Part shown: positions 44,540 through 60,870 of the stretch, piece by piece
How positions within the stretch are numbered: position 1 is the stretch's first letter
Layout: each line of letters opens with the position of its first letter
NCBI RefSeq assembly: GCF_905475395.1
Contig: NC_058342.1
Span: forward strand, 27,934,640-27,998,639
Length of the DNA: 64,000 bases
Source: Chrysoperla carnea
Lineage: Eukaryota > Arthropoda > Insecta > Neuroptera > Chrysopidae
Direction of reading: 5' to 3'
Notes under the pieces: model-generated
Told to the model about the DNA's origin: nothing
The model's input: the letters and a program-made list of their open reading frames with translations, nothing else
Database searches by the model: none
Position numbers and translations under genes: made by a program

Positions 44540-45151
44540 AGTAGATAACCTATGAGAATACTGGACCAAATTCAATGTTATTTCTCCATAAGAGAAATCG
44601 TCGATAATTTTAAAAAATTGGTATAGGAAAATACATGTTAAATATAAAAAAGGAAAGCGTGTAGAGTGTGGATGACGTAATGGTTCAGTTGTGACGTAGA
44701 CAGGTACCCTTTGAAATTTTGACTATTGGTACGGTTGAGCGGAAGCAAATTTTTGGAAGATAAGAAAGACCTATGAGAATACTGGACCAAATTCAATGTT
44801 ATTTCTCCATAAGAGAAATCGTCGATAATTTTAAAAAGTGGTATAGGAAAATACATGTTAAATATAAAAAAAGGAAAGCGTGTAGAGTGTGGATGACGTA
44901 ATGGTTCAGTTGTGACGTAGACAGGTACCCTTTGAAATTTTGACTATTGGTACGGTTGAGCGGAAGCAAATCAAGGTTAAGGGAAGTTGAATGTAATAAG
45001 AAAAAATTAGTATAGGAAAGAAATTAGGAGGAAATAAATGTGGTTAATAATTGTGGTTATTAAATATTTTAATTATTTCGATATTGTGGATACATAAGTG
45101 GTCTGTGGTATGACATACTTTGTGCGTTGTGGTTAACTGAAGTTGATAATA
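44540..45151 (+). repeat. Polinton left terminal inverted repeat, about 612 bp
   Basis: Complementary to 60156-60870. Starts AGTAGATAACCTATGAG and ends GGTTAACTGAAGTTGATAATA. It contains a direct duplication with a 221-bp offset (ACCTATGAGAATACTGG at 44548 and 44769), so the outer TIR segment is present twice; the copies are about 99 percent identical over roughly 200 bp. Confidence 0.9.
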
Positions 45152-45225
45152 AATCTCAAAAATAATAATTATAAGAAATTGTCGTTTTTTTGCTTAAGGG
45201 AAGTAGATTTTTTTAAATAAAAAAG

Positions 45226-45303
45226 TGGATCATCGAGTTGGGTTCGAACCAACATCTTTCTACAAACTTTGTTTGAATCAAATCATAAGATAGAAGATGT
45301 TTA
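45226..45303 (-). other. tRNA-like 3' half with encoded CCA
   Basis: Minus strand: a perfect T-arm (GTTGG, loop TTCGAAC, CCAAC) at 45253-45237, then TCGATGA (acceptor 3' strand), T and CCA. The preceding 45 bases form no D arm. The acceptor strand would pair with the 5' strand TCATCGG of the unit ending at 45492, suggesting that the three units derive from one tRNA-like gene by tandem duplication and decay. Confidence 0.55.
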
Positions 45304-45308
45304 TACTT

Positions 45309-45402
45309 ACCGTAACTGGGATTCGAAGTCATACTAAACGCATATTTGTAAGCATTCAAAGTGATGTTGAACGCTTTAAACCAATTATTAAGCTATCGAA
45401 TA
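45309..45402 (-). other. tRNA-like unit 2 (decayed)
   Basis: Minus strand: A-box-like TAGCTTAATAATTGGTTTAAAGC and B-box-like GACTTCGAATCCC, with an intervening stretch very similar to unit 1 (GCGTTCAACAT.ACTTTG). Acceptor ends do not pair and the D loop carries a 3-bp insertion, so it is not a functional tRNA. Confidence 0.5.
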
Positions 45403-45492
45403 TCATCGACTGGGATTCGAACTCATAGTACATGAATATTTGTAATCAAACAAAGTAATGTTGAACGCTTTAACCAATTAAGCTACCGATGA
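45403..45492 (-). tRNA. tRNA-like gene or pseudogene, unit 1
   Basis: Minus-strand 90-nt unit. Acceptor TCATCGG pairs with TCGATGA (7 bp, one G-T). The D arm GCTT/AAGC closes on a TTGG-containing loop, giving an A box TAGCTTAATTGGTTAAAGC, and the B box is GAGTTCGAATCCC. The T stem has two mismatches, and the anticodon arm within the 42-nt middle is ambiguous, so identity and function are undecided. Most likely a decayed tRNA captured by the Polinton. Confidence 0.45.
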
Positions 45493-45849
45493 CCCACGTA
45501 TTTAGTTGAAGTTTACTATATATATAAAGATTTTTTTCTTATCATTTTTTCGGTACAGCATTATTAATATTGTTGCTGATTATTAATTATGTATATTATA
45601 ATAAATTTTGTGATTAAAAGTATAAAAATCTACATGTGGTCTTTAAAAAAACTATAAGATGTGATACTAATTATTTTAATTAGATCAAAATAAAGGAGGA
45701 AAAACACAATTTCTTATCAATTTTTGATAGAAAAATATGTTTAAAATAATTATTTTAATTTTATAAAAAGCAGTATGATAATCATTTCAAAATACATATT
45801 AAAACAAAAACGTTATTGAAATCATAATAATATTTTTTGGAGAAAAAAA

Positions 45850-46242
45850 ATGGGTTTAGACGGAACATGTGGCAAGTTTAAATACAATGTATTTATAAGT
45901 TGGTTTATACCAACATGTTTGCAAGTGTTGTTTTTAACACCAAATCATTTTAAAAAATTGGTAACGTCAAAAGAAGCGTGGGAGATATTTGAGGAATTGA
46001 ATACGGTGAGAAAGGATGAAATTAAAAAAATGGTGATGGAACTTAAGGAACTGATGTATGAGTGTGAATATATTATGGAAGAAGAATTTCATCAACATGT
46101 AGGATGGCAGAATTTTGAACTACATTGTTTGAGGCGAGTTACTGATGGCTTATTCCAAAATTATTATGATGGTGAAATATTGGAGGAAATGTCAGCGTTC
46201 CTCAACTTATGGAACACAATAGCAATACAAAGACAAAATTGA
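45850..46242 (+). CDS. Polinton protein of unknown function, 130 aa
   Basis: Intact ATG frame, the first gene inside the left end. The protein is acidic and helical, with a lysine/glutamate-rich middle (residues about 46-80: EIFEELNTVRKDEIKK followed by methionines and glutamates) and aromatic residues spread through the C-terminal third. No signal peptide; residues 12-27 (VFISWFIPTCLQVLF) are hydrophobic but short. I recognise no family. It is followed by AATAAA at 46277-46282. Being intact next to a large intact polymerase gene suggests that it is real. A structural or regulatory role cannot be told from the sequence. Confidence 0.6.
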   Translation: MGLDGTCGKFKYNVFISWFIPTCLQVLFLTPNHFKKLVTSKEAWEIFEELNTVRKDEIKKMVMELKELMYECEYIMEEEFHQHVGWQNFELHCLRRVTDGLFQNYYDGEILEEMSAFLNLWNTIAIQRQN

Positions 46243-46466: not shown

Positions 46467-49400
46467 ATGGATTGTGGTATTGAGCTAAGTGGGCAGATAG
46501 TGAAAAAAATGGGGAAAGTTGTGAATATATTAAAAAGGACAAATAATTTAAAAAATTTAGAAAAATGGCTCAAATACTGTTGTCTAAATATTCGTAATTT
46601 CAAAAAATTTCTAAAGAAATGTGCATGTGTTGGGGCAAAAAGCCATTTGGAAGCTTGTATTTTTACAATGATAAGCTTTCGCGAACAAATCAAATCATTT
46701 TTACATAAGGGCGGTAGTTATGTCAATGGGAAAAAAGTTCGTGGAATGAAGTGGGAAGACATCGAGTCAGCATTCGAAAGCCGTTTAAGGACAAGTGTAA
46801 TAGTAAATTTAATTTACAAAGAACCTAAATTTTTTTTGAAGGACGCTGTAATGATGTTTAGTACGCGAATCAAAAACATTTTAAACCGTTTTGAATTTAT
46901 AAAAGTGAATACATCATTATGTTGTCAGTTTGTTAAGCTTATTGATAACGAAAATGTATCTTCAATGAAATTTTTTAATACAAAGAATGTAATAATCGAT
47001 CGTCAAACAGATCTAAAAAAATGGTTTTTGGTGAATGTCAAGGAGCCACTTTTAGCAGAATTGGAAGAATTTCAAGAACGCGATAGTGGATGGGCATTAA
47101 GGGACATAGTTAATTTAAGAATACATATAAACAAATGTCAATTATTAAGAGGCTCATCATACATAGAATTACCAAAATGTATTAAAGCGAAACATGCCTG
47201 TGTGAATGTTCAAAATAATGATGGAGCATGCTTTGCATGGGCAGTAACTTCAGCCCTATATCCAGTAAGAGAGCATTCAAACAGAATGAGCTCATATCCA
47301 CACTATTCGAACGTTTTGAAATTAAAAGGTATTAGCTTTCCAATGACAATAAAACAAGTCCCCAAATTTGAAAAATTAAATGGGTTAAGTATAAATGTAT
47401 ATATTTTGAAATTGTGTAAAAAAGGGAAATATAGTGTTGAGCCAGTGTTTCTAACATCAAAAAAACAATCAATTCATATTAATCTGTTAATGATACAAAA
47501 TATTTATTTAGAAGATCATGATGACAATTTTGATTTTGATAGTATCAAGCATGATAATGATGATATAAATATTAAATATCATTTTTGTTGGATAAAGAAT
47601 TTATCAAGACTCATATCAAGACAAATGAGTAAACATAAAGGGGCAATATATATATGTGATCGATGTCAACAATATTTTGTGTCTGAAATAAAATTAAAAA
47701 AACATAGTGAAGAATGTGGAGAGTATAATAAATGTAAAGTTGTTTTACCAGCTCCAGATAAAAAAATAATGAAATTTAAAAACTTTGCAAATAAAGAGCG
47801 TACAGTCATTGCTGTTTATGTTGACTTTGAGTGTATCTTAGCGCCCATAGACAAATGTGTTGGTAAAAAAGCAAAATGCTATCAAAAACATATTGCTTAC
47901 AGTGTTGGATACTATGTGTGTTGTACATATAAAAATGAACTAAATTATTATAAATCATACAGAGGTGAAAATTGTGAAAGATGGCTTGCAATGGAACTGA
48001 AAACTTTAGCGGACAAAGTTAATGAAACAATTGAAAATCCTGTACCAATGATCAAATTAAATGCTAGTGAAAAAGAAAAAATTAAAATGGTAACTAATTG
48101 TCATATTTGTGGGGAGCCTCTCTCTGCTACGGATCGAGTTTTAGATCATAATCATTTCACAGGCGCGTTTAGGGGAGTAGCCCATTCGGATTGTAATTTA
48201 AATTACCATGAATCCCATACTATACCAATTGTATTCCATAATCTTAGTGGATATGATGCGCATTTAATTATAGAAGAGATAGCTACAGCCTTTAAAGGTA
48301 GTATTAGTTTAATACCTCTGACAAAAGAAAACTATATTTCTTTCATAAAACAGGTGACAGGTACAAAAATCAAATTAAAATTTATAGATTCATTTCGATT
48401 TTTAAGCGCATCGTTAGAAAATTTAGCAGCACTTCTTAGCGAGTATAAAATATTGTATAAAAATTGTTTTGATGGTGATAATGATAAATTTAAATTACTA
48501 ACGCGAAAGGGTGTATTCCCATATGATTATATAAGCGATTTAACTAAATTAGATGAACAATCTCTACCATCAATTGATATGTTTTTTAGTACTTTAACTG
48601 ATTCAAAAATTTCAATTGATGAATACAGACATGCTCAAAATGTGTGGAAAGCCTTTAATATACAAACCTTGGGTGAATATAGTGATTTATATTTAAAAAC
48701 AGATGTTTTATTACTTGCTGATATTTTTGAAAATTTTCGCGATATGTGCTTGGAAAAATACCTCTTAGACCCCTGCCATTATTATACTTTACCTGGGCTA
48801 ACCTGGCAGGCAATGTTAAAATATACGAAAGTCGAATTAGAATTACTAACTGATATTGATATGATAATGTTTGTGGAGCAAGGTACTCGGGGTGGATTAA
48901 GCCAATGCAGTAATCGATATGCTAAAGCAAATAATAAATATATGTCAAATTATGATTGTAATAAAAAGAGTGAATATTTAATGTATTGGGATGTGAATGG
49001 TATGTATGCTTGGGCAATGCAACAGTGTCTCCCATTAAAGAATTTTCAATGGTGTACTGATACGGATATTGATGTAAAGTCTATACCAGATGATAATCCA
49101 GAAGGGTACATTTTTGAAGTTGATTTAAAATATCCAGATGATATACATGATATCCATAATGATCTTCCCATGTGTCCCACTCACGAAAAGCCTCCGGGGG
49201 GGAAAAGTAAAAAGCTTATTGCAACATTGTACGATAAGAAAAAATATATTTTGCATTATAGAAATTTAAAACAGTGTTTAAAATATGGGTTGGTTTTGGA
49301 AAAAGTACATCGTATATTAAAATTTGATCAGTCAGCATGGCTCAAACCATATATCGATTTGAATATAAAAATGAGAGCTGAAGCAAAGAGCAATTTTGAA

Positions 49401-50207
49401 AAAAATTTGTACAAGTTAATGAACAATGCTGTGTTTGGGAAAACTATGGAAAATATTCGAAAAAGAAGGGTAGTAAAATTACGTACACGATGGTTTGGTC
49501 GATATGGTGTAAAAGTATTGATTGCTAAGCCGAATTTTTATAATCGTACAATATTTAGTGAAAATTTAGTAGCAATTGAAATGAAAAATCTATCTTTATA
49601 TTTCAATAGACCGATTATTGTGGGAATGGCTACTTTAGATATTGCAAAAACCTGTTTCAATGATTTTCATTATGGTTATGTGAAACCAAAATTTGGGGAT
49701 AAGGCTAAAGGATTATACACTGATACGGACTCAATAATCTATAGCATTGAGACCGATGACATATATGAGATTAAGAAAGCAGATATAGATAGATTTGATA
49801 CAAGCGATTATGAACCGAATAATATTTATGGTATGCCATTAGTTAACAAAAAAGTGTCTGGATTAATGAAGGATGAATTAAATGGAAAGATTATGACTGA
49901 GTTTATTGGATTAAGAGCAAAAATGTATGCCTATAAGATTGATAATGATAATGAAAATATTGTGAAAAAGATAAAAGGTATTAAGAGAGATGTTGTAAAA
50001 AATCAAATAACTTTTGAAGATTATTATGAGTGTTTGAATAAATCAAAAATTAAAGTTACATCACAAAAATGTATACGTTCATTTAAACATAAATTGTATA
50101 GTATTGAAGAGAGTAAGGTAGCGTTAAGCGGAAATGATGATAAGAGATGTATGATTGATGGTAGTTTTGATACATATGCATGGGGTCATTATAAATTAAG
50201 AAACTAA
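46467..50207 (+). CDS. family B DNA polymerase, protein-primed type (Polinton pPolB), 1246 aa
   Basis: Expected to replicate the element from its terminal repeats. Exonuclease motifs: DFE near D453 (VYVDFECIL), N592...YD (FHNLSGYDAH), and YLKTDV with D746. Polymerase motif A is YWDVNGMYAW (D842), motif B KLMNNAVFGKTMEN (about 983-996), and motif C YTDTDS (D1086, D1088). Before the exonuclease, residues about 95-330 carry the long arthropod-Polinton N-terminal region with the NNDGACFAWAV block (C255), which resembles an OTU-like cysteine-protease-type fold by recall. A C2H2-like finger CDRC...H is near 397-417. A CHIC/HNHF cluster (C545 onward) resembles an endonuclease VII-type zinc/HNH patch between exonuclease motifs I and II. 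The start is the first ATG, after a TATA-like box. Full-length, no stop. Confidence 0.95.
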   Translation: MDCGIELSGQIVKKMGKVVNILKRTNNLKNLEKWLKYCCLNIRNFKKFLKKCACVGAKSHLEACIFTMISFREQIKSFLHKGGSYVNGKKVRGMKWEDIESAFESRLRTSVIVNLIYKEPKFFLKDAVMMFSTRIKNILNRFEFIKVNTSLCCQFVKLIDNENVSSMKFFNTKNVIIDRQTDLKKWFLVNVKEPLLAELEEFQERDSGWALRDIVNLRIHINKCQLLRGSSYIELPKCIKAKHACVNVQNNDGACFAWAVTSALYPVREHSNRMSSYPHYSNVLKLKGISFPMTIKQVPKFEKLNGLSINVYILKLCKKGKYSVEPVFLTSKKQSIHINLLMIQNIYLEDHDDNFDFDSIKHDNDDINIKYHFCWIKNLSRLISRQMSKHKGAIYICDRCQQYFVSEIKLKKHSEECGEYNKCKVVLPAPDKKIMKFKNFANKERTVIAVYVDFECILAPIDKCVGKKAKCYQKHIAYSVGYYVCCTYKNELNYYKSYRGENCERWLAMELKTLADKVNETIENPVPMIKLNASEKEKIKMVTNCHICGEPLSATDRVLDHNHFTGAFRGVAHSDCNLNYHESHTIPIVFHNLSGYDAHLIIEEIATAFKGSISLIPLTKENYISFIKQVTGTKIKLKFIDSFRFLSASLENLAALLSEYKILYKNCFDGDNDKFKLLTRKGVFPYDYISDLTKLDEQSLPSIDMFFSTLTDSKISIDEYRHAQNVWKAFNIQTLGEYSDLYLKTDVLLLADIFENFRDMCLEKYLLDPCHYYTLPGLTWQAMLKYTKVELELLTDIDMIMFVEQGTRGGLSQCSNRYAKANNKYMSNYDCNKKSEYLMYWDVNGMYAWAMQQCLPLKNFQWCTDTDIDVKSIPDDNPEGYIFEVDLKYPDDIHDIHNDLPMCPTHEKPPGGKSKKLIATLYDKKKYILHYRNLKQCLKYGLVLEKVHRILKFDQSAWLKPYIDLNIKMRAEAKSNFEKNLYKLMNNAVFGKTMENIRKRRVVKLRTRWFGRYGVKVLIAKPNFYNRTIFSENLVAIEMKNLSLYFNRPIIVGMATLDIAKTCFNDFHYGYVKPKFGDKAKGLYTDTDSIIYSIETDDIYEIKKADIDRFDTSDYEPNNIYGMPLVNKKVSGLMKDELNGKIMTEFIGLRAKMYAYKIDNDNENIVKKIKGIKRDVVKNQITFEDYYECLNKSKIKVTSQKCIRSFKHKLYSIEESKVALSGNDDKRCMIDGSFDTYAWGHYKLRN

Positions 50208-50247
50208 AAAATATTATTGATTATTAATTATTTATGTATATATTGAT

Positions 50248-50466: not shown

Positions 50467-50757
50467 ATGGCAAAACTGAGTGTAAGTTTTAAAATAGTTA
50501 ACAAGCGAGTGACGGAGGCTAAAATTTTTAAAGATAATGTACCAATGGGACATTGGTACATTAAAAATTATTGGCGTTTAAAAATTTTTGGTGGATGGCA
50601 GAATGAGTGCACTTTGGTGCACTTTATAAATAAATTGGATAGTATAATGGAGTACGAAAAAACGACAACTATTTATGTGGACAAACATGATGATTACATG
50701 TTATGTAAAAAATTGTTGAAAAGTTCACATAATGTTAATGTTGAATGGATTCTATAA
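50467..50757 (+). CDS. Polinton protein of unknown function, 96 aa
   Basis: Short intact frame starting at an ATG (context AAAAATGG) and preceded by its own TATA-like box. The protein has aromatic-rich strands (GHWYIKNYWRLKIFGGW) and a basic helix near the end (CKKLLKSS), and ends VEWIL. No signal peptide or membrane span. I do not recognise the family. Its position between the polymerase and the convergent integrase, together with the promoter signal, supports a real gene. Confidence 0.55.
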   Translation: MAKLSVSFKIVNKRVTEAKIFKDNVPMGHWYIKNYWRLKIFGGWQNECTLVHFINKLDSIMEYEKTTTIYVDKHDDYMLCKKLLKSSHNVNVEWIL

Positions 50758-51045: not shown

Positions 51046-51996
51046 TTATTTAACAATATCGATTTTATTTACCCACGAATCAAAATCCTTAGAGTATCCT
51101 AACCATCGAACGAACGCCTTATTCTTTTGACGTTTTAGAATTTTCTCCACTAAGAAGATGTTGGGATATTTTACTTTTTGTAGTTCGAATTCATAAAATC
51201 CACCAAGAATTTCAGCTCCATTGGTATCGTTAAGAAGGTAAGTTACAGGATTAGTGTTTCGAATTTTTCTTATTTGAAATATTTCAGCGGTCCATGATGG
51301 TAGGTAGCCTTTGTCAAACAATGATTTATATTTAGAAATTCTAACATAATCATTGATTTTAAACTTTGGTCGATCGGTGATTTTAATATTATTGTAGATG
51401 GTGGAGAGAAGCATTTTTTCATTAGACGCATTAACATCACATGGCTTCATTTTTATAGTACGATGATATTTTTGATTGTAGTTAGTAATCAATGATGAGA
51501 TAAGATTCACCCATTTATATGATCCATTTAAACTGAATTGTTTCCACATTTGCTCCTTTATAGTCCGATTGAACCGCTCAACAATTGCTGCTTTTATTGT
51601 GCTAAATGTTGAATAATGATTTATTCCATATTTTTCCATTAAACTATGAAATTTTTTATTGAAAAATTCCTTACCATCATCTGTTTGGAGATTTTTCGGT
51701 ATACGTCCTTGTTGAAAAATTTTAGTCATAGCATTACAAACCGCTTCACTACTTTTATTTTTGATGGGTGTGGCCCAGGCGTATTTAGAAAATGAATCAA
51801 TAACCGTAAGCAAATATTTGTATCCACTATTTTCTTTAGCATATGAACCCATTTCAACTAAGTCCGCTTGCCATAAATCATCCAGACCTTTTATAATTAC
51901 TCTTCTCCGTTTAAAATTCTTACGTGCAGGTTTATGGAGTTCGTTGACAACTTGTTGCTTCTTAGATATCATATTCGATGAGTTTTTCATTGTCAT
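51046..51996 (-). CDS. retroviral-type integrase with C-terminal chromodomain (Polinton INT), 316 aa
   Basis: Catalyses insertion of the element ends into the host chromosome, making the 6-bp duplication seen at both flanks. Catalytic DDE residues: D45 (WQADLVEM), D106 (LQTDDGKEF) and E140 (IVERFNRT), with 33 residues between the last two, in an RNase H-fold core (about 38-180). The basic N-terminus (KPARKNFKRRR) lacks the HHCC zinc fold of retroviral integrases. Residues about 279-316 (NIFLVEKILKR...FVRWLGY...SWV) form a chromodomain, known in other integrases to guide insertion to marked chromatin. The start codon lies 35 nt inside the end of the coiled-coil gene. The stop TAA sits within an AATAAA (minus strand, 51050-51045). 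Confidence 0.93.
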   Translation of the reverse strand: MTMKNSSNMISKKQQVVNELHKPARKNFKRRRVIIKGLDDLWQADLVEMGSYAKENSGYKYLLTVIDSFSKYAWATPIKNKSSEAVCNAMTKIFQQGRIPKNLQTDDGKEFFNKKFHSLMEKYGINHYSTFSTIKAAIVERFNRTIKEQMWKQFSLNGSYKWVNLISSLITNYNQKYHRTIKMKPCDVNASNEKMLLSTIYNNIKITDRPKFKINDYVRISKYKSLFDKGYLPSWTAEIFQIRKIRNTNPVTYLLNDTNGAEILGGFYEFELQKVKYPNIFLVEKILKRQKNKAFVRWLGYSKDFDSWVNKIDIVK

Positions 51997-52450
51997 TTAA
52001 TAACTTTATATTTTTATTAAATTTAGTTATATATGTAAGCCACTTTTGCTCAATAAGTTTTTCAACATCCGCTCTTAGCTTTTTCACATTTTCATCATCT
52101 TTTAGCTCAATCGATCTTTTAAGAACCTCTAAGCTTTTATCAAATTGTGCAAATAAATTATGAACGCTATTATCGAAATCACCCGTTATGGTTTTTTTAT
52201 AATCATGTACTTCTTTTGTCAACTCCCCCAATGAGTGTGAACTCGTATTCACTGTAGATGTTAATCCATTAAGTTTCACATACAAATTAGCTAGATTTTT
52301 AGCCATGACATCCAAATTGTCTGTTAGTGCAGTAATTTTTTCATTTGTTTTAAGTAGATATTGTTTGAGAGTTTTTATTTCAGAATTAGCTCGAAGTATA
52401 GTTGATGAAGCAGCCGATCTGCTTGAACGCCCAAACTTATCAACACTCAT
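51962..52450 (-). CDS. Polinton coiled-coil protein, unknown function, 162 aa
   Basis: Intact frame with heptad-like hydrophobic spacing over most of its length (about residues 20-60 and 100-160), rich in lysine, leucine, asparagine and serine, and a short basic N-terminus (FGRSSRSAASS). No catalytic motif seen. A minus-strand TATAAATA lies 36-43 nt upstream. It overlaps the integrase start by 35 nt on the same strand, so the two may share a transcript. It could be an assembly or scaffold component; that is only a guess from its shape. Confidence 0.65.
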   Translation of the reverse strand: MSVDKFGRSSRSAASSTILRANSEIKTLKQYLLKTNEKITALTDNLDVMAKNLANLYVKLNGLTSTVNTSSHSLGELTKEVHDYKKTITGDFDNSVHNLFAQFDKSLEVLKRSIELKDDENVKKLRADVEKLIEQKWLTYITKFNKNIKLLNDNEKLIEYDI

Positions 52451-52485: not shown

Positions 52486-52493
52486 TATTTATA
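52486..52493 (-). promoter_or_regulatory. TATA box for the coiled-coil (and integrase?) gene
   Basis: TATAAATA on the minus strand, overlapping the last codons of the DUF8207-like gene (stop at 52489-52491) and 36-43 nt before the ATG at 52450. Confidence 0.5.
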
Positions 52494-53523
52494 CAATAAT
52501 GTCGGCTTCATATAATTCCTCGAGTATACTCAATATTTCGCTTTGCACATTTGAATGACCTGCGTGTTGGGCTGCAATAAGGACCTTAAGGCGCTGGCAA
52601 AGTTCATTTACGTCGTTCCAGTAGGTGTAATGGACATTATCAGTGAGTTGCATTAAGCCCAAGCCTTCTATTTTCCCATCATTATTATCGTCAGTAGTAG
52701 TTTTAAATCTTTTCCGACTAATTGGTGGTTTGGTAATCGCCGTTGCCGGCTTTTTTTTTTGATTGTTGATGTTTGGAAACATTGGTTTAATAATATGATT
52801 ATACTTGTAACTTTTACTCGATTTTAATTGTAGATTTTCATCATTTTTATGTCTGTGTGCATTTGTTGTTCTCAAAATAAAACCATACTTGATTAGATCT
52901 TCTTGATTGTACAAATCTTCGTCGGGTTTCTTCATAAATAGCAATTCGTATAGACCGCGAGTACCTTTGTACGATGTCTCTCCAATTTCTAAATTATTAT
53001 TGTGTATATGTAACTCAGAATTACCAATATACCATTTACCGTCTTCCCAGCGTGGTCCAAAAGTATGATCGATAGCATTATTTGTGGTGAGCGTACGTTT
53101 TAGATATTCTCCCGCTATATCACCAAAATCTTCATTTTTTGAAAAAAAATTTTCAAGTTCTACATATCCCTGAGCTTTAGGTTGACTCATCAGCCTTCTA
53201 GCCGCTAATTGGGCTGATTCACGACGAACGGGCGTTGTTTGAAAAACTTCATCATTGTCTGAATCTAGCATTAATGGTGTTTTTACCATTTCATATGGAG
53301 GTGTTATGGTTTCTTTTTTAGGTGGTGTCTCCACATTTTTTATATCCAATTTTTTCTTTTTTTCTTTAATTTCTGTTACAATCTCTTCCAACGGTGCGGT
53401 AATTGGTTTCAAGCTTGTTTTAACTAAAAGATCAGATTCAATTTTTCCACTCTTAATTTGTTTATACTTTTCTCGAATTGATTTCGATGCTTTAATTATA
53501 TTTTTTGTAAGCTGTTCATCCAT
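52489..53523 (-). CDS. Polinton DUF8207-like protein, 344 aa
   Basis: Resembles a protein family that I recall from arthropod Polintons under the Pfam label DUF8207. The marks are a DHTFGPRWEDGKWYIG block (about 160 residues in), then SYKGTRGLYELLF, and a C-terminal YWNDVNELCQRL...IAAQHAGHSN...ILEELYEA block. The N-terminal third is lysine-rich and low complexity; KRKR-type basic patches near residue 270 may direct nuclear entry. I take the ATG at 53523 as the start; the open frame extends upstream only through a CA-microsatellite and has no other ATG. Function unknown; its presence in a virion gene set suggests a structural or regulatory role. Confidence 0.75.
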   Translation of the reverse strand: MDEQLTKNIIKASKSIREKYKQIKSGKIESDLLVKTSLKPITAPLEEIVTEIKEKKKKLDIKNVETPPKKETITPPYEMVKTPLMLDSDNDEVFQTTPVRRESAQLAARRLMSQPKAQGYVELENFFSKNEDFGDIAGEYLKRTLTTNNAIDHTFGPRWEDGKWYIGNSELHIHNNNLEIGETSYKGTRGLYELLFMKKPDEDLYNQEDLIKYGFILRTTNAHRHKNDENLQLKSSKSYKYNHIIKPMFPNINNQKKKPATAITKPPISRKRFKTTTDDNNDGKIEGLGLMQLTDNVHYTYWNDVNELCQRLKVLIAAQHAGHSNVQSEILSILEELYEADIIV

Positions 53524-53627
53524 TATTTTTTTGCGTTCACACACACACACACAAATGTAATGTGGGAGGGTAGTTGACCGTTTAACGGCTGATGATGAAA
53601 TGATTTATTTTTCCATGTAACACATCC

Positions 53628-53706: not shown

Positions 53707-53749
53707 GGTATGATCGATGATCCGATATAAAAATAGAGCCGATGACAAC

Positions 53750-54532
53750 TTAAATCTGTATGAAAGTATCAAATCCATTACGATAACGTCCTTTATTAAT
53801 TTCACAATCCTTATCTATCACTAGAAATCCATATTTTTGTTTCCAACACTCCGCACACATACTTTTAAATGTATCAAATGACATATCAGTATTGATATGA
53901 TCATTGAATATATGACGTAAATTTAAATCATCCTGTTTGAACAAGATTAAATGATTACAGTTGTCTCTGATTAAGTGTTTTGGAATTGCTGTATATGATT
54001 GGGATAAATAGAGACAATCAATATCGTTATGACGTGACATTGAAAAATACAAACGAATATTATCTTGTTTATCGCAAGCAACATCATCAAATATAAATAT
54101 TGAATTCTTACGCGCCTCTTCCGGTGGTAATACATCACAGTTATTGGAGAATTCATAATAACCTAACCCTTTTACATTTTCCAAGATCTTCTTTAAATAT
54201 TGATATTTTGGCTGATGGAGAGACTTTGAATACACATAGACATTTTCAAATTTTAAACCATTTGGGTGTTCTAGGAGACTTATAACAACATTTGTTTTTC
54301 CTACAACAACAACAACAACAACAACATCAACAATAATAATAATAATAATAATAAAAATTGAAGAAAAAAAATATTATTGTTTTTTAAGAGTACCTGAATT
54401 TGAAGGACCACATAAAATTCCACGTATACTATTTGGTAACAATTCACCATGTTTCTTAACACGATCAGTTTTTGTATTTTCGAAATCGGCGTTTCGTATC
54501 GGTAAAACTATATTTTGTTTTATAAAACGCAT
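53750..54532 (-). CDS. genome-packaging ATPase (FtsK/HerA type, Polinton ATP), two exons, about 229 aa
   Basis: Expected to pump DNA into the capsid. Exon 1 is 54532-54394 and exon 2 is 54300-53750; the 93-bp gap begins GT and ends AG on the minus strand, and removing it keeps the frame with one codon split. The Walker A loop straddles the junction: its glycine-rich part (ILCGPSNS) ends exon 1, and the lysine-threonine opens exon 2. Walker B is FIFDDV, followed by SMSRHNDIDCLYLSQSY, typical of this family. The start is the ATG at 54532; upstream codons are open but have only TTG. Read without splicing, exon 1 meets a stop within seven codons. Alternative: a microsatellite insertion has broken the gene. 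Confidence 0.85.
54301..54393 (-). other. predicted 93-bp intron in the ATPase gene
   Basis: Minus strand: donor CAG|GTACTC, acceptor TTGTTGTAG|GA. The interior is a T-rich tract followed by (ATT)n and (GTT)n microsatellite. It restores a conserved P-loop, which makes a real intron likelier than damage. Confidence 0.75.
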
Positions 54533-54744
54533 TTTTTTTTTTGCGATCGAACTAATTCCATCAAGGTTGTACACGTAATGGGTCAACAGCTAGATGCCGG
54601 CTTCCAGCAGCTAGATGCCGGCTTCCATCATCCGGATTCTAACGCCAGATGGCAGCAGTGCGGTGGTGGGGGGGTTGACATTTTTTGTTATAATATATAT
54701 ATATATATATTTTATGATGCGAAAAAAAAAAATCAATAAATAAT
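54533..54744. promoter_or_regulatory. divergent promoter region between the ATPase and PLA2 genes
   Basis: 212 bp between divergent start codons. Contains two direct copies of CAGCTAGATGCCGGCTTCCA at 54587 and 54608 (21-bp period), a GC-rich patch with GGTGGGGGGG, and TATAATATATATATATATAT at about 54689-54711, 35-55 nt before the ATG at 54745. The small frame across it (54515-54739) is not a gene. Confidence 0.5.
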
Positions 54745-55575
54745 ATGATTTATCGTGATCGAAACGTTAGTCGTTATTCATCGTCGTCGAGGAGAGTTTG
54801 TGGTCGAGGGTTTGTTAATTCCATTATAAATTCCCTACCATTTGAACTACATGTACCCGGCTATCAATTTTGTGGACCTGGTACTGATTTAAAAACACGA
54901 TTGGCGAGAGGTGATCAAGGAATTAACAAGTTAGATAGCGCATGTAAAAATCATGATATTGCATACTCAAAATATAAAGATTTAAATAATCGTCATAGGG
55001 CCGATTTAGAATTAGCCGATAAAGCGTGGAGTCGTGTTAAATCAACGGACGCCGGATTTGGAGAACGAGCTGCTGCTTGGGCTGTAACAAACGCCATGAA
55101 AGCTAAAGTTAAATTGGGGATGGGTTATGTTGATCGGAGCCAGAAGAAGAAGAAGCAGGTGAAAAAACAAAGAAAAATCCCGTTTCGAGCGGCCGTGAAA
55201 AGTGCACGAGATGCTTTAAAGAAAACAAAAGCCACCAACATTAATGATGCAATTAAAGTTGCTATTACTGCTGCTAAAAAAGTAATTAAACGAAAAAATG
55301 TACGAACACCACGAATCATCCCAATTCCAAAAGTTGGTGGTGCACTTCCATTCTTACTTCCCCTATTTGCTGGTCTCTCAGCTATTGGTTCACTAGCCGG
55401 CGGTACTGCGGGCGTTGCTAAAGCCATTACTGATGCTAGTAATGCTAAAAAACAGCTTGCTGAAAAACAACGTCATAACAAGACAATGGAGGAGATTGCT
55501 TTGAAGAATGGTAATGGTTTATTTTTGCGACCCTACAAGACCGGCCTTGGTTTATACATGAATCCAAAAAACTAA
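54745..55575 (+). CDS. phospholipase A2-type capsid protein (parvovirus-VP1-like PLA2 domain), 276 aa
   Basis: Residues about 36-95 match the viral PLA2 domain: calcium-loop motif PGYQFCGPG (38-46) and catalytic dyad H70-D71 in NHDIAYSKY. In parvoviruses such a domain sits on a capsid protein and cuts endosomal membranes during entry; here the role is inferred. A lysine-rich patch (135-145, KKKKQVKKQRK) and a basic helix region follow, then a hydrophobic glycine/alanine segment at 198-226 (GGALPFLLPLFAGLSAIG), and a C-terminal GNGLFLRPYKTGLGLYM. It may be a minor virion component. The protease gene starts 2 nt after its stop, suggesting co-expression and perhaps cleavage by it. Confidence 0.85.
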   Translation: MIYRDRNVSRYSSSSRRVCGRGFVNSIINSLPFELHVPGYQFCGPGTDLKTRLARGDQGINKLDSACKNHDIAYSKYKDLNNRHRADLELADKAWSRVKSTDAGFGERAAAWAVTNAMKAKVKLGMGYVDRSQKKKKQVKKQRKIPFRAAVKSARDALKKTKATNINDAIKVAITAAKKVIKRKNVRTPRIIPIPKVGGALPFLLPLFAGLSAIGSLAGGTAGVAKAITDASNAKKQLAEKQRHNKTMEEIALKNGNGLFLRPYKTGLGLYMNPKN

Positions 55576-55577
55576 CA

Positions 55578-55946
55578 ATGAAGCTACTACCGAAACGTCC
55601 CCTAAATGAACTAGATCTATATAAATATTGTAAAAATATCCCATATTTTCGTGGCGTTTTCATGCGCGACAATTTACCGCAGAGGCCAAGAAAAAATGAA
55701 TGCGCAATTATAAATTTAGATGATTCAGGACATGGGGGGACACACTGGTGCGCTTACAGAAAGTGCGGTGTAGTAGCGGAATATTTTGATAGTTTTGGAA
55801 ATTTACAACCACCGTTGGAGCTTGTTAAATATTTGGGTGCTGATACTACAATAAATTATAATTATATGAGATATCAAGATTTCAACACATACAATTGTGG
55901 ACACCTGTGTATCCAGTTTTTATTAACACCAGAAAATTTTCTATAA
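55578..55946 (+). CDS. adenovirus-type cysteine protease (Polinton PRO, C5/Ulp1-like), 122 aa
   Basis: Cuts virion precursor proteins during maturation, by analogy with the adenovirus protease. Catalytic set in order: H56 (GTHWCAY), D71 (EYFDSFGN), Q100 (RYQDFNTYNCG) and nucleophile C107 (NCGHLC). At 122 aa it is compact, as is usual for Polinton copies. The ATG follows the PLA2 stop after 2 nt (TAA-CA-ATG), and the next gene (minor capsid) starts 38 nt after its stop. Such tight packing is virus-like and unusual for a eukaryotic chromosome. All key residues are present, so activity is plausible. Confidence 0.92.
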   Translation: MKLLPKRPLNELDLYKYCKNIPYFRGVFMRDNLPQRPRKNECAIINLDDSGHGGTHWCAYRKCGVVAEYFDSFGNLQPPLELVKYLGADTTINYNYMRYQDFNTYNCGHLCIQFLLTPENFL

Positions 55947-55984
55947 ATAACTGTGATTTTTTCTAAAAATTTTCATTTGCTATT

Positions 55985-56704
55985 ATGCCATCATCATCGT
56001 ATACACTGACTGTTTGTGGAAACAGTAGTATCATCACCGTCGATTATTTTCCACCCATTGATTTTGGCTCAAAAAACTACAAATGTGCATTATATACTTT
56101 TCAATCGTATAATTCGATCGCTAATGTCGACAGAAGCTGTAATCAAATTCATATTGGTAACATTTTAATTATTATGCTACCGGTTGGAGCCTACGAAATA
56201 CATGATATTAATCAATATGTACAAGAGTTTCTTCAACAATACAATAAGGATCACCCGAAAAAAATTACATTAACAATTCAAGCAAATAACAATACTTTAC
56301 AATGTGAAGTGAGGTGTAGTGAAAAACTCTATTTCAATAGGGAGAATTCGATTGGCTCATTGTTGGGTTTCAGTCGACGTGAATTAGATGCCAATTATTT
56401 ACACTCATCAGATTTACCCGTAAATATTAACAAAGTAGACGTTATCCGTATCGAGAGCAATATTACAACGGGAGCCTATATTAATAACAAATTGGTGCAT
56501 ACATTACACGAATTCTATCCGATGGTGGAGCCAGGCTATAAAATAGTCGAAGTTCCAAAAAATATCATTTATTTGCCTGTGAACGTTAAGAAGCTAACAT
56601 CTCTAACAATTAAAATTACTGATCAAAACGGTAACCTAATTGACTTTCGTGGTGAGAATATTATTGTACGTTTACATCTATGTCATGATAACGTACAACA
56701 ATAG
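55985..56704 (+). CDS. minor capsid (penton) protein, single jelly-roll, 239 aa
   Basis: Forms the capsid vertices in the polintovirus model. The sequence is rich in short beta strands and carries the family pattern LPVGAYEIHDINQY (about 65-78), a NNNTLQCEV strand pair, and NSIGSLLGFS (about 122-131), which I recognise from Polinton penton proteins. No signal or membrane segment. It follows the protease by 38 nt and overlaps the 48-aa frame that leads into the major capsid gene. No stop or shift. Family assignment by recall of motif pattern. Confidence 0.85.
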   Translation: MPSSSYTLTVCGNSSIITVDYFPPIDFGSKNYKCALYTFQSYNSIANVDRSCNQIHIGNILIIMLPVGAYEIHDINQYVQEFLQQYNKDHPKKITLTIQANNNTLQCEVRCSEKLYFNRENSIGSLLGFSRRELDANYLHSSDLPVNINKVDVIRIESNITTGAYINNKLVHTLHEFYPMVEPGYKIVEVPKNIIYLPVNVKKLTSLTIKITDQNGNLIDFRGENIIVRLHLCHDNVQQ

Positions 56705-56831
56705 ACGACAACAATACAGTATCAAGCCGTTATCATCAACACAAGGACAAAAGAAAAACATTGGAAAACTAACGGCAGAGAACAGGGACTTTTTGAAAAG
56801 TTTGGGACTTGTTTTAAAAAACAATGGATAG
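56685..56831 (+). CDS. small overlapping protein before the major capsid gene, 48 aa
   Basis: An ATG frame that starts inside the last 20 nt of the penton gene and ends 8 nt inside the major capsid gene. It is basic (RR, QKKNIGK) and ends LTAENRDFLKSLGLVL; similar short L....FL.SLG peptides sit in Polinton capsid clusters as far as I recall. Since both neighbouring frames are bridged exactly, it is likely translated. Function unknown. Confidence 0.5.
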   Translation: MITYNNRRQQYSIKPLSSTQGQKKNIGKLTAENRDFLKSLGLVLKNNG

Positions 56832-58029
56832 CGCTGAAATGCTTAATATATCCGATGGTGTTCACTTTGATGAAAGTATTACAAAAATTGAGTACCATAG
56901 CTATTCACCATTTCTATCGACGTTTGACAACAATGATGAAATACGAATTTGTATTCAAAATCAAAATTTAAATATTTTAATTTGCGAAAGTTTCCTCTAT
57001 ATTGAGGGGACCGTGAAAAAAGCCAGCGATAATACACTATCAACCACCGCCAAATTGGTAAACAATTATCCAGCTTTTTTATTCGAAGAAATACGCTATG
57101 AGATAAATGGCATTGAAATTGATCGTGTTCGCAACGTTGGACATACTTTAACATTAAAAAATTATATCTCACTTAATGCTAATGAAAGTAAAATGCTATT
57201 AAATGCTGGTTGGTGTCCTGAAAATAATATTGATTTCTCCGATGGTAATATTAATATTTGCATGCCATTAAAGAGAATTCTTGGCTTCGCAGAAGATTAT
57301 ATGAAAATTATTCCAAATGCTAAGCATGAATTAATTTTGAATCGAGCACGAAATGATTTAAATGCAATTATATCGCCAACTGATGAAATGAAATTTGAAA
57401 TCACAAAACTACAATGGCACGTTCCACACGTTCAACTTCATGATGAGCAGAAACTATTATTATATAAATTTATCAATAGCAATCAATCAATTAAGATGAG
57501 CTTTCGTAGTTGGGATATGTATGAATATCCAGTTCTCCCAACTACAACACACCAAGTCTGGGCTGTAAAATCATCGACACGTTTGGAAAAGGGGAGATTT
57601 GTTATCTTTGCTCTACAAACTAATCGACGAAACCTGAAGGAGAAGGATGCGAGTCGTTTTGATCATGCCAATTTGACTGATATAAAAGTGTTTTTAAACT
57701 CGGATGTGTATCCATATAGTGATCTCAATATAGATTTTCAAAATAATCGATATGCTTTACTATACGAAATGTATTCAAAATTTCAAGAATCATATTATAA
57801 AACTAACAGTCAGCCACTCTTATCACCACAACAATTCAAAGAAATAGCTCCCATTGCCCTCATAAATTGTTCACACCAAATGGATGAAATAAAGACGGGA
57901 CCGGTGGATCTTAAAATTGAATTCAAATGTAAATCTAATATTAAGCCTAATACTAGTGCATATTGTCTAATTTTACATGATCGTATTGTTGAATATAATC
58001 CACTTACGAATGATGTAAAAAGATTATAA
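56824..58029 (+). CDS. major capsid protein, double jelly-roll (Polinton MCP), 401 aa
   Basis: Builds the icosahedral shell in the polintovirus model. The length is a little under the usual 450-600 aa for this group, but the N-terminal pattern (DSITKIEYHSY.P, NQNLNILICESFLYIEG), the FLFEEIRYEINGIEID strand pair, the mid-protein WHVPHVQL and SFRSWDMYEYP, and the late YPYSDLNIDF and C-terminal SCHQM-like/DLKIEFKC segments all fit Polinton MCPs as I recall them. It is intact. It starts 8 nt before the stop of the 48-aa frame. Two overlapping AATAAA signals begin right after the stop. Confidence 0.9.
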   Translation: MDSAEMLNISDGVHFDESITKIEYHSYSPFLSTFDNNDEIRICIQNQNLNILICESFLYIEGTVKKASDNTLSTTAKLVNNYPAFLFEEIRYEINGIEIDRVRNVGHTLTLKNYISLNANESKMLLNAGWCPENNIDFSDGNINICMPLKRILGFAEDYMKIIPNAKHELILNRARNDLNAIISPTDEMKFEITKLQWHVPHVQLHDEQKLLLYKFINSNQSIKMSFRSWDMYEYPVLPTTTHQVWAVKSSTRLEKGRFVIFALQTNRRNLKEKDASRFDHANLTDIKVFLNSDVYPYSDLNIDFQNNRYALLYEMYSKFQESYYKTNSQPLLSPQQFKEIAPIALINCSHQMDEIKTGPVDLKIEFKCKSNIKPNTSAYCLILHDRIVEYNPLTNDVKRL

Positions 58030-58039
58030 AATAAATAAA
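58030..58039 (+). terminator. polyadenylation signals after the major capsid gene
   Basis: AATAAATAAA directly follows the stop codon. It could end a transcript covering the whole 54745-58029 cluster. Confidence 0.55.
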
Positions 58040-58155
58040 TTATACTAAAATAACTTTTTTTTCACTTATTTCCTTTCCCAACTCTCCCACACACACACAC
58101 ACACTGAAAAAAAAATTTGTGGATTTTAAAAGAAAACTAGAAATTTTTTGTTTGT

Positions 58156-58866
58156 TTATTTTTTATTTTTAACTATTTTGAATTTTTCCAAATAATCCAA
58201 TTCCTTATTCATTAAAACTTTCAGACGCTGGACTAACTGTAAAGTGCTGCTTTTTAATTTCCCAACAAAAATATTTTCAGTAGACCCATAATACCTTACG
58301 TCATGTAGAAATATTGAACCATCGACGAAATTAATATAAAAATATTTTATATTTTCAATGTAGTTGATACCAAAAAAATCGAGAATTTCCATATTTATAA
58401 TATGTAAAATTTTTGTGTTAATATTTACAACATTTTGTACATGTTGTTGAATATTAAACCGTTCGTTAATACTTCGCCTTTTACGTTCACCCTTTAGATG
58501 GTCATATGTGATGTCATCCAAACGTTCATTGGGTTTCAACACTTCCATTAATTTTTTTAACGTATCCATTTGATTCTCGTTTCTTGTAAAATTACTATTA
58601 AAAAAATTTCTCGAATTTTTCTCAAATGCATCCGATACACTTATTAGGTCGGTTTCGTTTTTCGAATTATAAAAATTGTTATAAACTTTTTGAATTGATC
58701 CATGATTTGTAATCGCCTGTATTTCCGAGTTTTGAATATTGTGTTGAACGGGATATACACTGTCTAACAATGCATTCACTACACTGACGTTACTATTTTT
58801 TAAGAAAATGTAAAACAATGGCAGAGTAATTTTATAATAGTAATTTATAAAAGTAAAATTCGCCAT
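58156..58866 (-). CDS. Polinton protein of unknown function with N-terminal hydrophobic stretch and RKRR site, 236 aa
   Basis: Intact ATG frame convergent with the major capsid gene. Residues about 4-22 (FTFINYYYKITLPLFYIFL) are hydrophobic and could be a signal or anchor. The asparagine-rich middle has several N-X-S/T sites, and GERKRRSIN (about 126-134) contains a furin-type basic motif. The C-terminal half is helical (about 145-225). Such features also occur in viral envelope proteins, but no C-terminal membrane span and no known family is visible, so this stays unknown. A TATA-like TATTTAAA lies about 40 nt upstream. Confidence 0.6.
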   Translation of the reverse strand: MANFTFINYYYKITLPLFYIFLKNSNVSVVNALLDSVYPVQHNIQNSEIQAITNHGSIQKVYNNFYNSKNETDLISVSDAFEKNSRNFFNSNFTRNENQMDTLKKLMEVLKPNERLDDITYDHLKGERKRRSINERFNIQQHVQNVVNINTKILHIINMEILDFFGINYIENIKYFYINFVDGSIFLHDVRYYGSTENIFVGKLKSSTLQLVQRLKVLMNKELDYLEKFKIVKNKK

Positions 58867-59124
58867 AATTATACTATACTAGATATGAAATTCCAATTTT
58901 CGTTGTTTAAATACTCTGAAAATATTGATCTATACTTACGTATTTGAACTTTTTGAATTGCAAACTTTGCAAAATTTTCTTGCGCGTGTGTAACCTTTTG
59001 ATCTTTTTTTTATTTTTGCTGATGTAAGTTTATTTGTAGGAAAATTATTTTCTTAATTAAAACAAATCATTTTTTTTTTTTTTTTTCGTTTATTATATGA
59101 AAGAATACAATTACATAAAAAAAA
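58867..59124. other. intergenic region in the Polinton
   Basis: Between two minus-strand genes. Has T-rich runs, including one at about 59069-59087, and probable promoter sequence for the gene ending at 58866. Nothing else seen. Confidence 0.55.
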
Positions 59125-59700
59125 TTATAATATCAATTTATTAGGATAAAAATATGATATTTCTTTTAAGATTATAAAAGCTAATTTTCCCCAAGATTGA
59201 CCAATCATTTCAAGTGTATACTCAAGTTCAAAATAGGTTGTAGGATGTTTGTTTATCATTCGATATGTGTATACATTAATTTTTTTAATTATTTGTTTTA
59301 TGTCTACTTGAATTAATTGATCAAAAATGGAAGATAACATACCACTTATTTCAAATATTTTAACAATTGATGTATTAGAATAAATTATTTTTTTATTAAT
59401 TATCATAACTTTTTGCTTTTTTATTAAACAAAGTGTTATGGTTAGACCATTTACATCGAAACTTACATTTTCTTCTTCACCCATTGATGTATGCGAATGT
59501 AAATAAACCATTATATATGATTGCAATTCCAAAAACAAATACCACTGTTTTACATCCATAAATATTGAGTACTTTCTCGATGAAAATCTAATCTTCTCTA
59601 CCATAGAAGATGGATCAATACCAACGCCTATTGATCTTGATGGATTTAAAAAATATTTACGTTCCATTATCATTTTTGTTGTTGTTGATGATGTTGACAT
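59125..59700 (-). CDS. Polinton protein of unknown function, 191 aa
   Basis: Intact ATG frame. The N-terminus is serine/threonine-rich and low complexity (MSTSSTTT). Residues about 37-68 (EKIRFSSRKYSIFMDVKQWYLFLEL) look like a beta-beta-helix unit. The rest alternates strands and isoleucine-rich helices, ending YFYPNKLIL. No signal peptide and no catalytic motif. A PC4-like or other nucleic-acid-binding fold is possible from the pattern, but I cannot support it. It sits 58 nt downstream of the 92-aa gene on the same strand. Confidence 0.6.
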   Translation of the reverse strand: MSTSSTTTKMIMERKYFLNPSRSIGVGIDPSSMVEKIRFSSRKYSIFMDVKQWYLFLELQSYIMVYLHSHTSMGEEENVSFDVNGLTITLCLIKKQKVMIINKKIIYSNTSIVKIFEISGMLSSIFDQLIQVDIKQIIKKINVYTYRMINKHPTTYFELEYTLEMIGQSWGKLAFIILKEISYFYPNKLIL

Positions 59701-59758
59701 CCATTACCAAATGATCCACATTTTTTTTTCTTGTAATTGTATTCAAATATGGTTGTTG

Positions 59759-60037
59759 TTATACAAACTCGAGATCAAATGAGCCATACTCATTTTCTCC
59801 CTTCACAATTAAATAAAGTGGTTTTGTTTCCAAAATTTTTTCAACTTCTTCAAGTTTCAATTTTTGATAACGATTTGGTAAAATAACCAATGAATCTTCC
59901 AATTCTAACGTCCATCTACTACCAAATTTGGTTTTATATGATTGAATAAACTGCACTAAATACTTTTTATTCACTTCTAAATCACTAAATTTAGCGAATG
60001 GTTTCAACGTATTACATTCATTTAAAATTGACGACAT
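59759..60037 (-). CDS. Polinton small beta-rich protein, possible OB-fold ssDNA-binding type, 92 aa
   Basis: The gene nearest the right terminal repeat. The pattern KYLVQFIQSYKTKFGSRWTLELEDSLVILPNRY (about residues 25-57, seen in short pieces: YLVQFIQS, KFGSRW, LELED, ILPNRY) is a run of beta strands with conserved FG.RW and LP.R, which I recall as a recurrent small Polinton/parvovirus-associated protein. OB-like single-strand DNA binding is inferred. It ends with a second strand pair (LYLIVKGENEYGSFDLEFV). The ATG is 119 nt inside the terminal repeat boundary. Confidence 0.65.
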   Translation of the reverse strand: MSSILNECNTLKPFAKFSDLEVNKKYLVQFIQSYKTKFGSRWTLELEDSLVILPNRYQKLKLEEVEKILETKPLYLIVKGENEYGSFDLEFV

Positions 60038-60155
60038 TTTTTTGTATTTTTTTTTTTAAAAATAACAATAGTTTGCTTCACTGATTTGACGAATAATAAA
60101 AAATTTTTTCTTAAATTAATCAATTATATACTCCTTTAATGATTTTTTTGTGACG

Positions 60156-60870
60156 TATTATCAACTTCAGTTAACCACAACGCACAAAGTTGGTCATACC
60201 ACAGACCACTAGTTCATCCACATTATTAACCACATTTTATTTCCTCCTAATTTCTTTCCTATACTAATTTTATTCAACTTCCCCTTAACCTTGATTTGCT
60301 TCCGTACCAATAGTCAAAATTTCAAAGGGTTCTTGTCTCCGTCACAGCTGAACCATTACGTCACTTTCCTATTTAATATTTTTACATGTCTGTTCCTGCA
60401 AACCACATTTTATATCCTCTTAATTTCTTATTACATTCAACTTAAGTTCTAATTATTTCTTATCTTCCAAAAATTTGCTTCCGCCGTACCAATAGTCAAA
60501 ATTTCAAAGGGTTCTTGTCTCCGCCACAGCTCTATTACGTCACTCTACACACTTTCCTATTTAATATTTTACATGTCTATTCCTGCAAACCACATTTTAT
60601 ATCCTCTTAATTTCTTATTACATTCAACTTAAGTTCTAATTATTTCTTATCTTCCAAAAATTTGCTTCCGCTCAACCGTACCAATAGTCAAAATTTCAAA
60701 GGGTACCTGTCTACGTCACAACTGAACCATTACGTCATCCACACTCTACACGCTTTCCTTTTTTATATTTAACATGTATTTTCCTATACCAATTTTTTAA
60801 AATTATCGACGATTTCTCTTATGGAGAAATAACATTGAATTTGGTCCAGTATTCTCATAGGTTATCTACT
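60156..60870 (-). repeat. Polinton right terminal inverted repeat, about 715 bp
   Basis: Complement of 44540-45151. Inside, TTTGCTTCCG..GTACCAATAGTCAAAATTTCAAAGGG occurs three times (about 60296, 60476 and 60661), against two in the left repeat. The inner two copies match each other closely and differ from the outermost, which is the one closest to the left end. Confidence 0.9.

What the first reader, a model, noticed from the sequence alone, without database searches (positions are those of the whole stretch)
44540..60870. An apparently intact, recently inserted Polinton/polintovirus with full virion gene set
Perfect 6-bp AACATC duplications, matching AG-start termini, long terminal inverted repeats and uninterrupted frames for polymerase, integrase, protease, both capsid proteins and (with one intron) the packaging ATPase. 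Most Maverick copies in animal genomes are broken; one with every core gene open is a candidate for a mobile or particle-forming lineage.
Basis: partly seen in the sequence, partly recalled or inferred. Interest (0 to 1): 0.88.

Follow-up and report, generated by a model that had tools for sequence, protein, structure and literature searches.

The report
Open-frame lacewing Polinton, a recombinant
A virus-like mobile element with its core genes unbroken sits in the genome of the green lacewing Chrysoperla carnea; it is of a known kind, but it is a patchwork of related elements and one of a large, mostly unbroken population in that genome.

Summary
Confirmed. Window 44540-60870 (16,331 bp) is a complete Polinton/Maverick in the Chrysoperla carnea genome: perfect 6-bp AACATC duplications, 228-bp terminal repeats without mismatch, open frames for polymerase, integrase, protease, double-jelly-roll capsid, penton (fold matches mavirus and adenovirus pentons) and packaging ATPase (one 93-nt intron splitting Walker A). 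It is a new member of a known kind (insect group II Maverick, alpha-adintovirus-like); intact insect copies are already in print.

It is not a lone survivor: the genome gave 105 capsid matches (a lower bound), 66 full length, 60 of these without a stop. It is also a recombinant. PolB residues 401-1246 differ from a chromosome-3 element at 11 of 480 synonymous sites, while the hexons of the same two elements have synonymous distance about 2; its virion module instead matches other elements at 94-100%, its left end a third lineage. dN/dS against a sister subfamily is 0.06-0.24 for ATPase, PLA2-domain protein, protease, penton and hexon.

Most likely a recently replicating virus genome, formed in cells holding several Polinton lineages and inserted by Polinton integrase. 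Transcripts, particles and the empty site were not testable. Elsewhere in the genome lie TSD-flanked palindromic PolB-only derivatives.

The parts
44534..44539 (.). left target-site duplication AACATC
44540..44767 (+). left terminal inverted repeat, exact match to right one; a second tandem copy of bases 9-211 follows at 44769-44971 (98.5% identical)
45850..46242 (+). 130-aa ORF of unknown function; shared with x51/x52/x53-type ends and sister copies c6/c8, not found in the pieces of c2, c3, c4, c12
46467..50207 (+). protein-primed-type family B DNA polymerase, 1246 aa, with an endonuclease-VII-like zinc region
   Evidence: Endonuclease_7 E 1.1e-4 to 6.4e-5, just under cutoff; 50% identical paralog is DNA_pol_B_2 E 8.8e-26; motifs seen by eye
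50467..50757 (+). 96-aa ORF of unknown function
51046..51996 (-). rve integrase, 316 aa, weak C-terminal chromo domain
   Evidence: PF00665 E 3.2e-17; Chromo E 0.0045, under cutoff
51962..52450 (-). 162-aa predicted coiled-coil protein, function unknown
   Evidence: only weak coiled-coil-type Pfam matches
52489..53523 (-). 344-aa protein of unknown function, conserved in other elements (57% in c12)
54394..54532 (-). packaging ATPase exon 1, ends inside the Walker A motif (phase 1)
54301..54393 (-). 93-nt GT-AG intron splitting Walker A; absent from the c12 lineage and most other ATPases of the genome
53750..54300 (-). packaging ATPase exon 2
   Evidence: intronless c12 homolog matches Pox_A32 E 4.3e-6, above cutoff
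54745..55575 (+). parvovirus-type phospholipase A2 domain protein, 276 aa
   Evidence: PF08398 E 2.5e-13
55578..55946 (+). adenovirus-type cysteine protease, 122 aa
   Evidence: PF00770 E 0.013, under cutoff; H, D and C signature seen by eye
55985..56704 (+). penton base (minor capsid protein), 239 aa
56824..58029 (+). double-jelly-roll major capsid protein (hexon), 401 aa
   Evidence: PF21738 E 5.8e-121
58156..58866 (-). 236-aa accessory protein without known relatives; replaced by other genes in the sister subfamily
59125..59700 (-). 191-aa protein of unknown function; about 24% identical protein in L011-L014
59759..60037 (-). 92-aa small protein (possibly ssDNA-binding, by recall only)
60643..60870 (-). 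right terminal inverted repeat
60871..60876 (.). right target-site duplication AACATC

Best explanation
A complete provirus-like Polinton of the insect (group II / alpha-adintovirus-like) kind. Shown: the ends, the target duplication, the open core genes, the recombinant make-up, and purifying selection on its genes. Inferred from the family: the genome replicates as linear DNA from a protein primer, is packaged by the ATPase into capsids of hexon and penton matured by the protease, the PLA2 domain helps it leave the endosome, and the integrase cuts staggered by 6 bp to insert it. Inferred from the mosaic: its parent molecule arose by template switching or recombination while several Polinton lineages replicated in the same cells. 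The insertion is young on the genome's scale.
For: Ends and TSD and the same end structure in 7 of 8 other tip pairs. Gene identities. Mosaic: best partner changes along the element; W-c12 synonymous changes 11 of 480 sites in PolB 401-1246 against 164 of 234 in hexon, Fisher p 2e-89, while W-c2 goes the other way (PolB 1-240 dS 0.28, hexon 0.056). Selection: W against c8 dN/dS 0.06 ATPase, 0.08 protease, 0.12 integrase, 0.15 hexon, 0.16 penton, 0.20 ORF 52489, 0.24 PLA2; PolB 0.19-0.25. Recency: 0 mismatches in 228 bp of TIR.
Against: No RNA, particle or replication data. TIR length is short, so 0 of 228 bounds divergence only to about 1.3% (rule of three). Less constrained genes: coiled coil dN/dS 0.44, small 92-aa protein 0.38. 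No empty site found: the left flank is unique and the right flank runs into a repeat family about 60 bp out. dN/dS mostly reports selection before insertion, so it does not show that this copy acts now. The PLA2, protease and PolB steps rest on weak or indirect domain matches.
Confidence: 0.88

Rival explanations
1. Plain transposon: the element moves cell-internally as linear DNA and the capsid genes are kept for something other than infectious particles.
For: Virion function is not shown here or for any Polinton by data I saw; many PolB-only palindromic derivatives spread with TSDs and without hexon in the piece read.
Against: Hexon, penton, protease and ATPase are under purifying selection and 60 of 66 full-length hexons are stop-free; c12 keeps the set with diverged capsids.
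Confidence: 0.2
2. Host-domesticated capsid locus (a virus-like-particle system kept by the lacewing).
For: Open frames in many copies.
Against: Perfect TSDs and exact TIRs, several diverged lineages, dispersed copies with terminal clusters, recombination between lineages: a mobile family rather than one kept locus.
Confidence: 0.03
3. The mosaic is not recombination but uneven synonymous constraint, PolB evolving more slowly than capsid genes.
For: In 9 of the 10 pairs of the five elements compared, some PolB segment has lower dS than hexon; PolB 401-800 is low in all 10 (0.022-0.091).
Against: W-c2 has PolB 1-240 dS 0.28 and 801-1246 dS 0.195 but hexon 0.056; W differs from all four others by 0.27-0.31 at PolB 1-240, where those four differ from each other by 0.02-0.04; W-c12 changes from 0.27 to 0.02 inside one gene, and similarity to c12 ends within about 20 bp after the PolB stop.
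Confidence: 0.03
4. Assembly artefact at the borders or inside the element.
For: Many near-identical copies could mislead an assembler; reads were not available.
Against: Perfect 6-bp TSD, exact TIRs; mosaic patterns recur in copies on different chromosomes.
Confidence: 0.03

Closest known systems
Spodoptera frugiperda Maverick 1 and 2 (PMC5803895, passages seen)
   Same: PolB with a recombination endonuclease VII region, 228-aa packaging ATPase, integrase with chromo domain, adenovirus-type protease, parvovirus-VP1-like (PLA2) protein; reported as apparently intact.
   Different: The paper reports no PY/double-jelly-roll homolog there; here a clear one is present. Different host order. No sequence comparison with them was made here.
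Alpha-class adintoviruses (definition in PMC11071296, passages)
   Same: PolB, rve integrase with chromodomain, hexon, penton, protease, ATPase; linear 13-16 kb animal elements (Drosophila-associated adintoviruses 13.3-14.6 kb, PMC8363768, passages).
   Different: N-terminal OTU domain and BLAST reciprocity to the reference hexons were not tested here; Starrett et al. 2021 itself was not held.
Group II Mavericks of insects (PMC10328495, passages)
   Same: Insect hosts, six core genes and TIRs; 12 intact ones already in that paper.
   Different: Species of those 12 not seen (supplement not read).
Mavirus / Sputnik penton and adenovirus penton base (PDB 6g41, 3j26, 6b1t and others)
   Different: About 11-13% sequence identity; shorter than the adenovirus protein.

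Membership tests
Polinton/Maverick | family B (protein-primed) DNA polymerase | tested here: met
   No direct Pfam match, no PDB match; homologous over 1264 columns at 50% to a protein matching DNA_pol_B_2 E 8.8e-26
Polinton/Maverick | retroviral-type (rve) integrase | tested here: met
   PF00665 E 3.2e-17
Polinton/Maverick | packaging ATPase | tested here: met
   intronless homolog, 76% identical to exon 2, matches Pox_A32 E 4.3e-6 above cutoff
Polinton/Maverick | adenovirus-type cysteine protease | tested here: inconclusive
   Peptidase_C5 E 0.013, under cutoff; catalytic residues seen by eye only
Polinton/Maverick | double-jelly-roll major capsid protein | tested here: met
   PF21738 E 5.8e-121
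Polinton/Maverick | penton / minor capsid protein | tested here: met
Polinton/Maverick | terminal inverted repeats and 6-bp target duplication (6 bp is recalled) | tested here: met
Group II Maverick | no ~140-aa VSR-like insertion in PolB | tested here: inconclusive
   no VSR-type match in Pfam at E<=1; not aligned to a group I PolB
Alpha-class adintovirus | C-terminal chromodomain on integrase | tested here: inconclusive
   Chromo E 0.0045, 17.3 bits against cutoff 25.1
Alpha-class adintovirus | N-terminal OTU-like domain in PolB | not tested
   no Pfam OTU match listed; no fold made
Alpha-class adintovirus | hexon reciprocally recognisable by BLASTP with reference adintoviruses | not tested
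   reference sequences not fetched

The most novel reading that the evidence does not exclude
The lacewing genome records a swarm of co-replicating Polinton viruses that swap a replication module (PolB and ends) against a virion module, and whose linear protein-primed replication also yields inverted-dimer (palindromic) molecules that the integrase inserts with a 6-bp duplication and that then spread as satellites. That would make the genome a direct record of Polinton replication intermediates.
Probability: 0.4. Interest if true: 0.8.

Novelty: new member of a known kind. Interest (0 to 1): 0.55.

Why it matters
Polintons are held to be viruses, but particles have rarely if ever been seen. 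A living, rearable insect with dozens of stop-free capsid genes, recent insertions, constraint on every virion gene and fresh recombination between lineages is a place where the question 'do Polintons still make particles?' can be asked directly by observation (expression, protected DNA, extrachromosomal linear DNA). The palindromic derivatives, if general, would be genomic evidence for the long-proposed linear replication intermediate.

Tried and rejected
Accessory gene 58156-58866: first thought to be an entry protein because of a basic stretch; no homolog at E<=0.001 among 201 candidates, no Pfam match at E<=1, model without information (pLDDT 43, one sequence). Left as function unknown, under constraint (dN/dS 0.06 and 0.08 against c3 and c4). 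Its distribution in the whole genome stayed unknown: the search did not complete.

Empty site: the 800-bp flank query found no paralogous empty site. Viral contigs: a hexon profile found no relative among IMG/VR contigs (14 pattern matches, none confirmed). Solved structures: no sequence match for hexon or PolB. PHROGs: only endonuclease VII, transposase and weak matches. NCBIfam: transposase matches for the integrase, nothing for PolB. First dN/dS run treated reverse-strand loci L003, L004 and L007 as forward; those rows are void, redone for L003 and L004. The strong PolB conservation at 47840-48740 was first suspected to be a hidden element; 12 of 43 DNA matches are 96-100% identical over most of it, but neighbours diverge to 68-70%, so it is taken as recent exchange within one group.

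Literature: no paper held with Polinton+Chrysoperla or Maverick+lacewing; Polinton+Neuroptera gave two papers on other subjects, listing only; Chrysoperla genome papers, listing only; Polinton+palindrome terms gave 11 papers, listing only, mainly casposons and other mobile DNA by their titles. These cover open-licence papers only, so absence in print is not shown.
Full report
What was checked. The window lies at C6:27,934,640-27,998,639 of a 559-Mb genome. Its hexon is 99% identical to a protein of Chrysoperla carnea, and two contig lengths (77,476,099 and 76,427,138) equal those of that species' records, so the host is the common green lacewing.

Ends. The element spans 44540-60870. AACATC flanks it on both sides, the terminal repeats are identical for 228 bp, and related subterminal tandem units follow. 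In other elements the ends are alike: AGTAG tips and a perfect 6-bp duplication for 5 of 5 pairs and for c12 and x53; one doubtful pair (x51) failed. In a more distant Polinton family 9 of 10 pairs had perfect 6-bp duplications, and an eleventh, on C5, did not.

Population. A hexon search gave 105 matches with 103 of 158 candidates scored, so counts are lower bounds. 66 are full length (query start <=10, end >=389) and 60 of these have no stop. Of 94 matches on the six large contigs, 69 lie in the outer 10% of a contig, 18.8 expected; the window copy does not. The nearest eight hexons are 92-99% identical, others fall in groups at 67-68% and 38-55%. In a tree of 48 rows the Chrysoperla hexons need four changes of host label, at least two of them forced by well-supported branches, so several lineages entered or persisted. 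Within the sister copies examined, decay is visible: c2 has stops in PolB, ORF 52489 and the accessory gene and broken integrase and PLA2 frames; c3 has PolB interrupted; c4 has a split integrase; c5 lacks the PolB start. Copies without a stop in the pieces read also exist (c8 with about 3 kb not fetched; c12).

Mosaic. In 300-bp steps the closest of the copies read changes along the element: from 44540 to about 46640 x51/x52 (90-98%); from 46640 to 47840 c5 or c12 (95-98%); from 47840 to 50239 c12 (97-100%); from 51140 to 59839 the best of c2, c3 and c4 reaches 94-100% in each step; the right end (60140-60870) has only poor partners (70-90%). c12 stops matching about 20 bp after the PolB stop codon. 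Synonymous counts make the point without reference to selection: W-c12 has 32 of 137 at PolB 1-240, 7 of 91 at 241-400, 5 of 234 at 401-800, 6 of 246 at 801-1246, and 164 of 234 in hexon. W-c2 has 32 of 137 at PolB 1-240 but 13 of 239 in hexon. c2 against c6 and c8 has PolB dS 0.02-0.08 but ATPase, penton and hexon 0.23-0.40. So PolB, or parts of it, moves between capsid lineages. PolB 401-800 is close in all ten pairs, so slower synonymous change there may add to the signal; it cannot explain pairs that go opposite ways.

Accessory slot. Copies L002-L005 carry the 236-aa gene at 96-99%. In L006-L009, whose hexons are 92-93% identical to the window's, it gives no match; in the three of these whose ORFs were listed (L006, L008, L009) the place holds an ORF that, in L006, resembles the sina RING finger (E 1e-5, 26.0 bits, under the 29.3 cutoff). 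This is a likely gene exchange at one slot.

Intron. The window lineage splits Walker A with a short GT-AG intron (GC-AG in c3): present in 6 of 6 copies read (window, c2, c3, c4, c6, c8), absent in c12. Of 150 ATPase rows listed (158 matches), 90 cross this point without a break and 13 begin at it; the other 47 begin beyond it. A gain in this lineage is the simplest reading. It implies that the ATPase message must be spliced in the nucleus.

Selection. W against c8: dN/dS 0.06 ATPase exon 2, 0.08 protease, 0.12 integrase, 0.15 hexon, 0.16 penton, 0.20 ORF 52489, 0.24 PLA2 protein, 0.38 for the 92-aa protein, 0.44 coiled coil. PolB 0.19-0.25 against four copies. Against c3 and c4 changes are few and ratios run from 0 to 0.45.

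Age. Zero differences in 228 bp allow up to about 1.3% divergence at 95%. No local clock was used. The empty site was not found.

How it works. Shown: complete ends, open genes, constraint, recombination. Inferred: protein-primed linear replication, packaging, integration by a 6-bp staggered cut, all from the family. I rate 'recent provirus of a Polinton virus population' at 0.88 and leave present activity open.

Palindromes. The PolB search showed mirror pairs. The one on C3 (57,692,045-57,706,250) is 99.97% palindromic over 6,751-bp arms, with an open 1303-codon frame holding PolB in each arm and a 59-residue integrase remnant; no hexon, penton or ATPase of the window matched there at E<=1e-3. 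It has AGTAG tips and a perfect TSD. On C6 (2,813,158-2,829,006) the pair also has a perfect TSD, by coordinates only. The C5 pair has lost it. Another mirror pair on C4 holds ATPase and hexon in each arm around a 279-bp spacer with 99.7% identical inner arms (317 bp read). Such inverted dimers are known, by recall, for protein-primed linear plasmids and for defective adenoviruses. This is a lead, not part of the verdict on the window.

Noticed in passing
G000 C3:57692045-57706250 (L062, L063); C6:2813158-2829006; C5:66894029-66907887; C1:138350643-138361651 and C6:5893808-5907868 by coordinates: Palindromic PolB-only Polinton derivatives; two with perfect 6-bp TSD, one without, two not read at the ends.
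   Followed up: partly
G000 C4:50537146-50551786: Mirror pair of ATPase and hexon genes with common axis; 279-bp spacer between 99.7% identical inner arms.
   Followed up: partly
G000 C197:1524240-1525436, C4:36877545-36883139, C3:15586703-15593016, C1:139329907-139331817: Short (1.2-6.3 kb) pairs with Polinton tips; 3 of these 4 have perfect 6-bp TSDs: likely non-autonomous Polinton derivatives.
   Followed up: partly
window 54301-54393: Lineage-specific intron inside Walker A of the packaging ATPase.
   Followed up: yes
L006:3364-4095, L008:3363-4094, L009:2998-3729: Sina-RING-like ORF in the accessory slot of sister Polintons, perhaps a captured ubiquitin-ligase gene.
   Followed up: partly
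G000 C1 last 7 Mb, C5 69.9-74.1 Mb, C6 first 13 Mb: 17, 30 and 28 of 105 hexon matches lie in these three stretches: accumulation near contig ends.
   Followed up: partly
window 60937-61729: Member of a repeat family with inner inverted repeats begins about 60 bp right of the element (about 38 other matches at 86-90% in the capped list).
   Followed up: no
window 143-487: ORF fragment that looks (by recall) like the C-terminal end of a non-LTR retrotransposon protein.
   Followed up: no
P0003: Metagenome-assembly hexon on a contig of up to 6 kb that is nearly identical to the L011-L013 group; source organism unknown.
   Followed up: no
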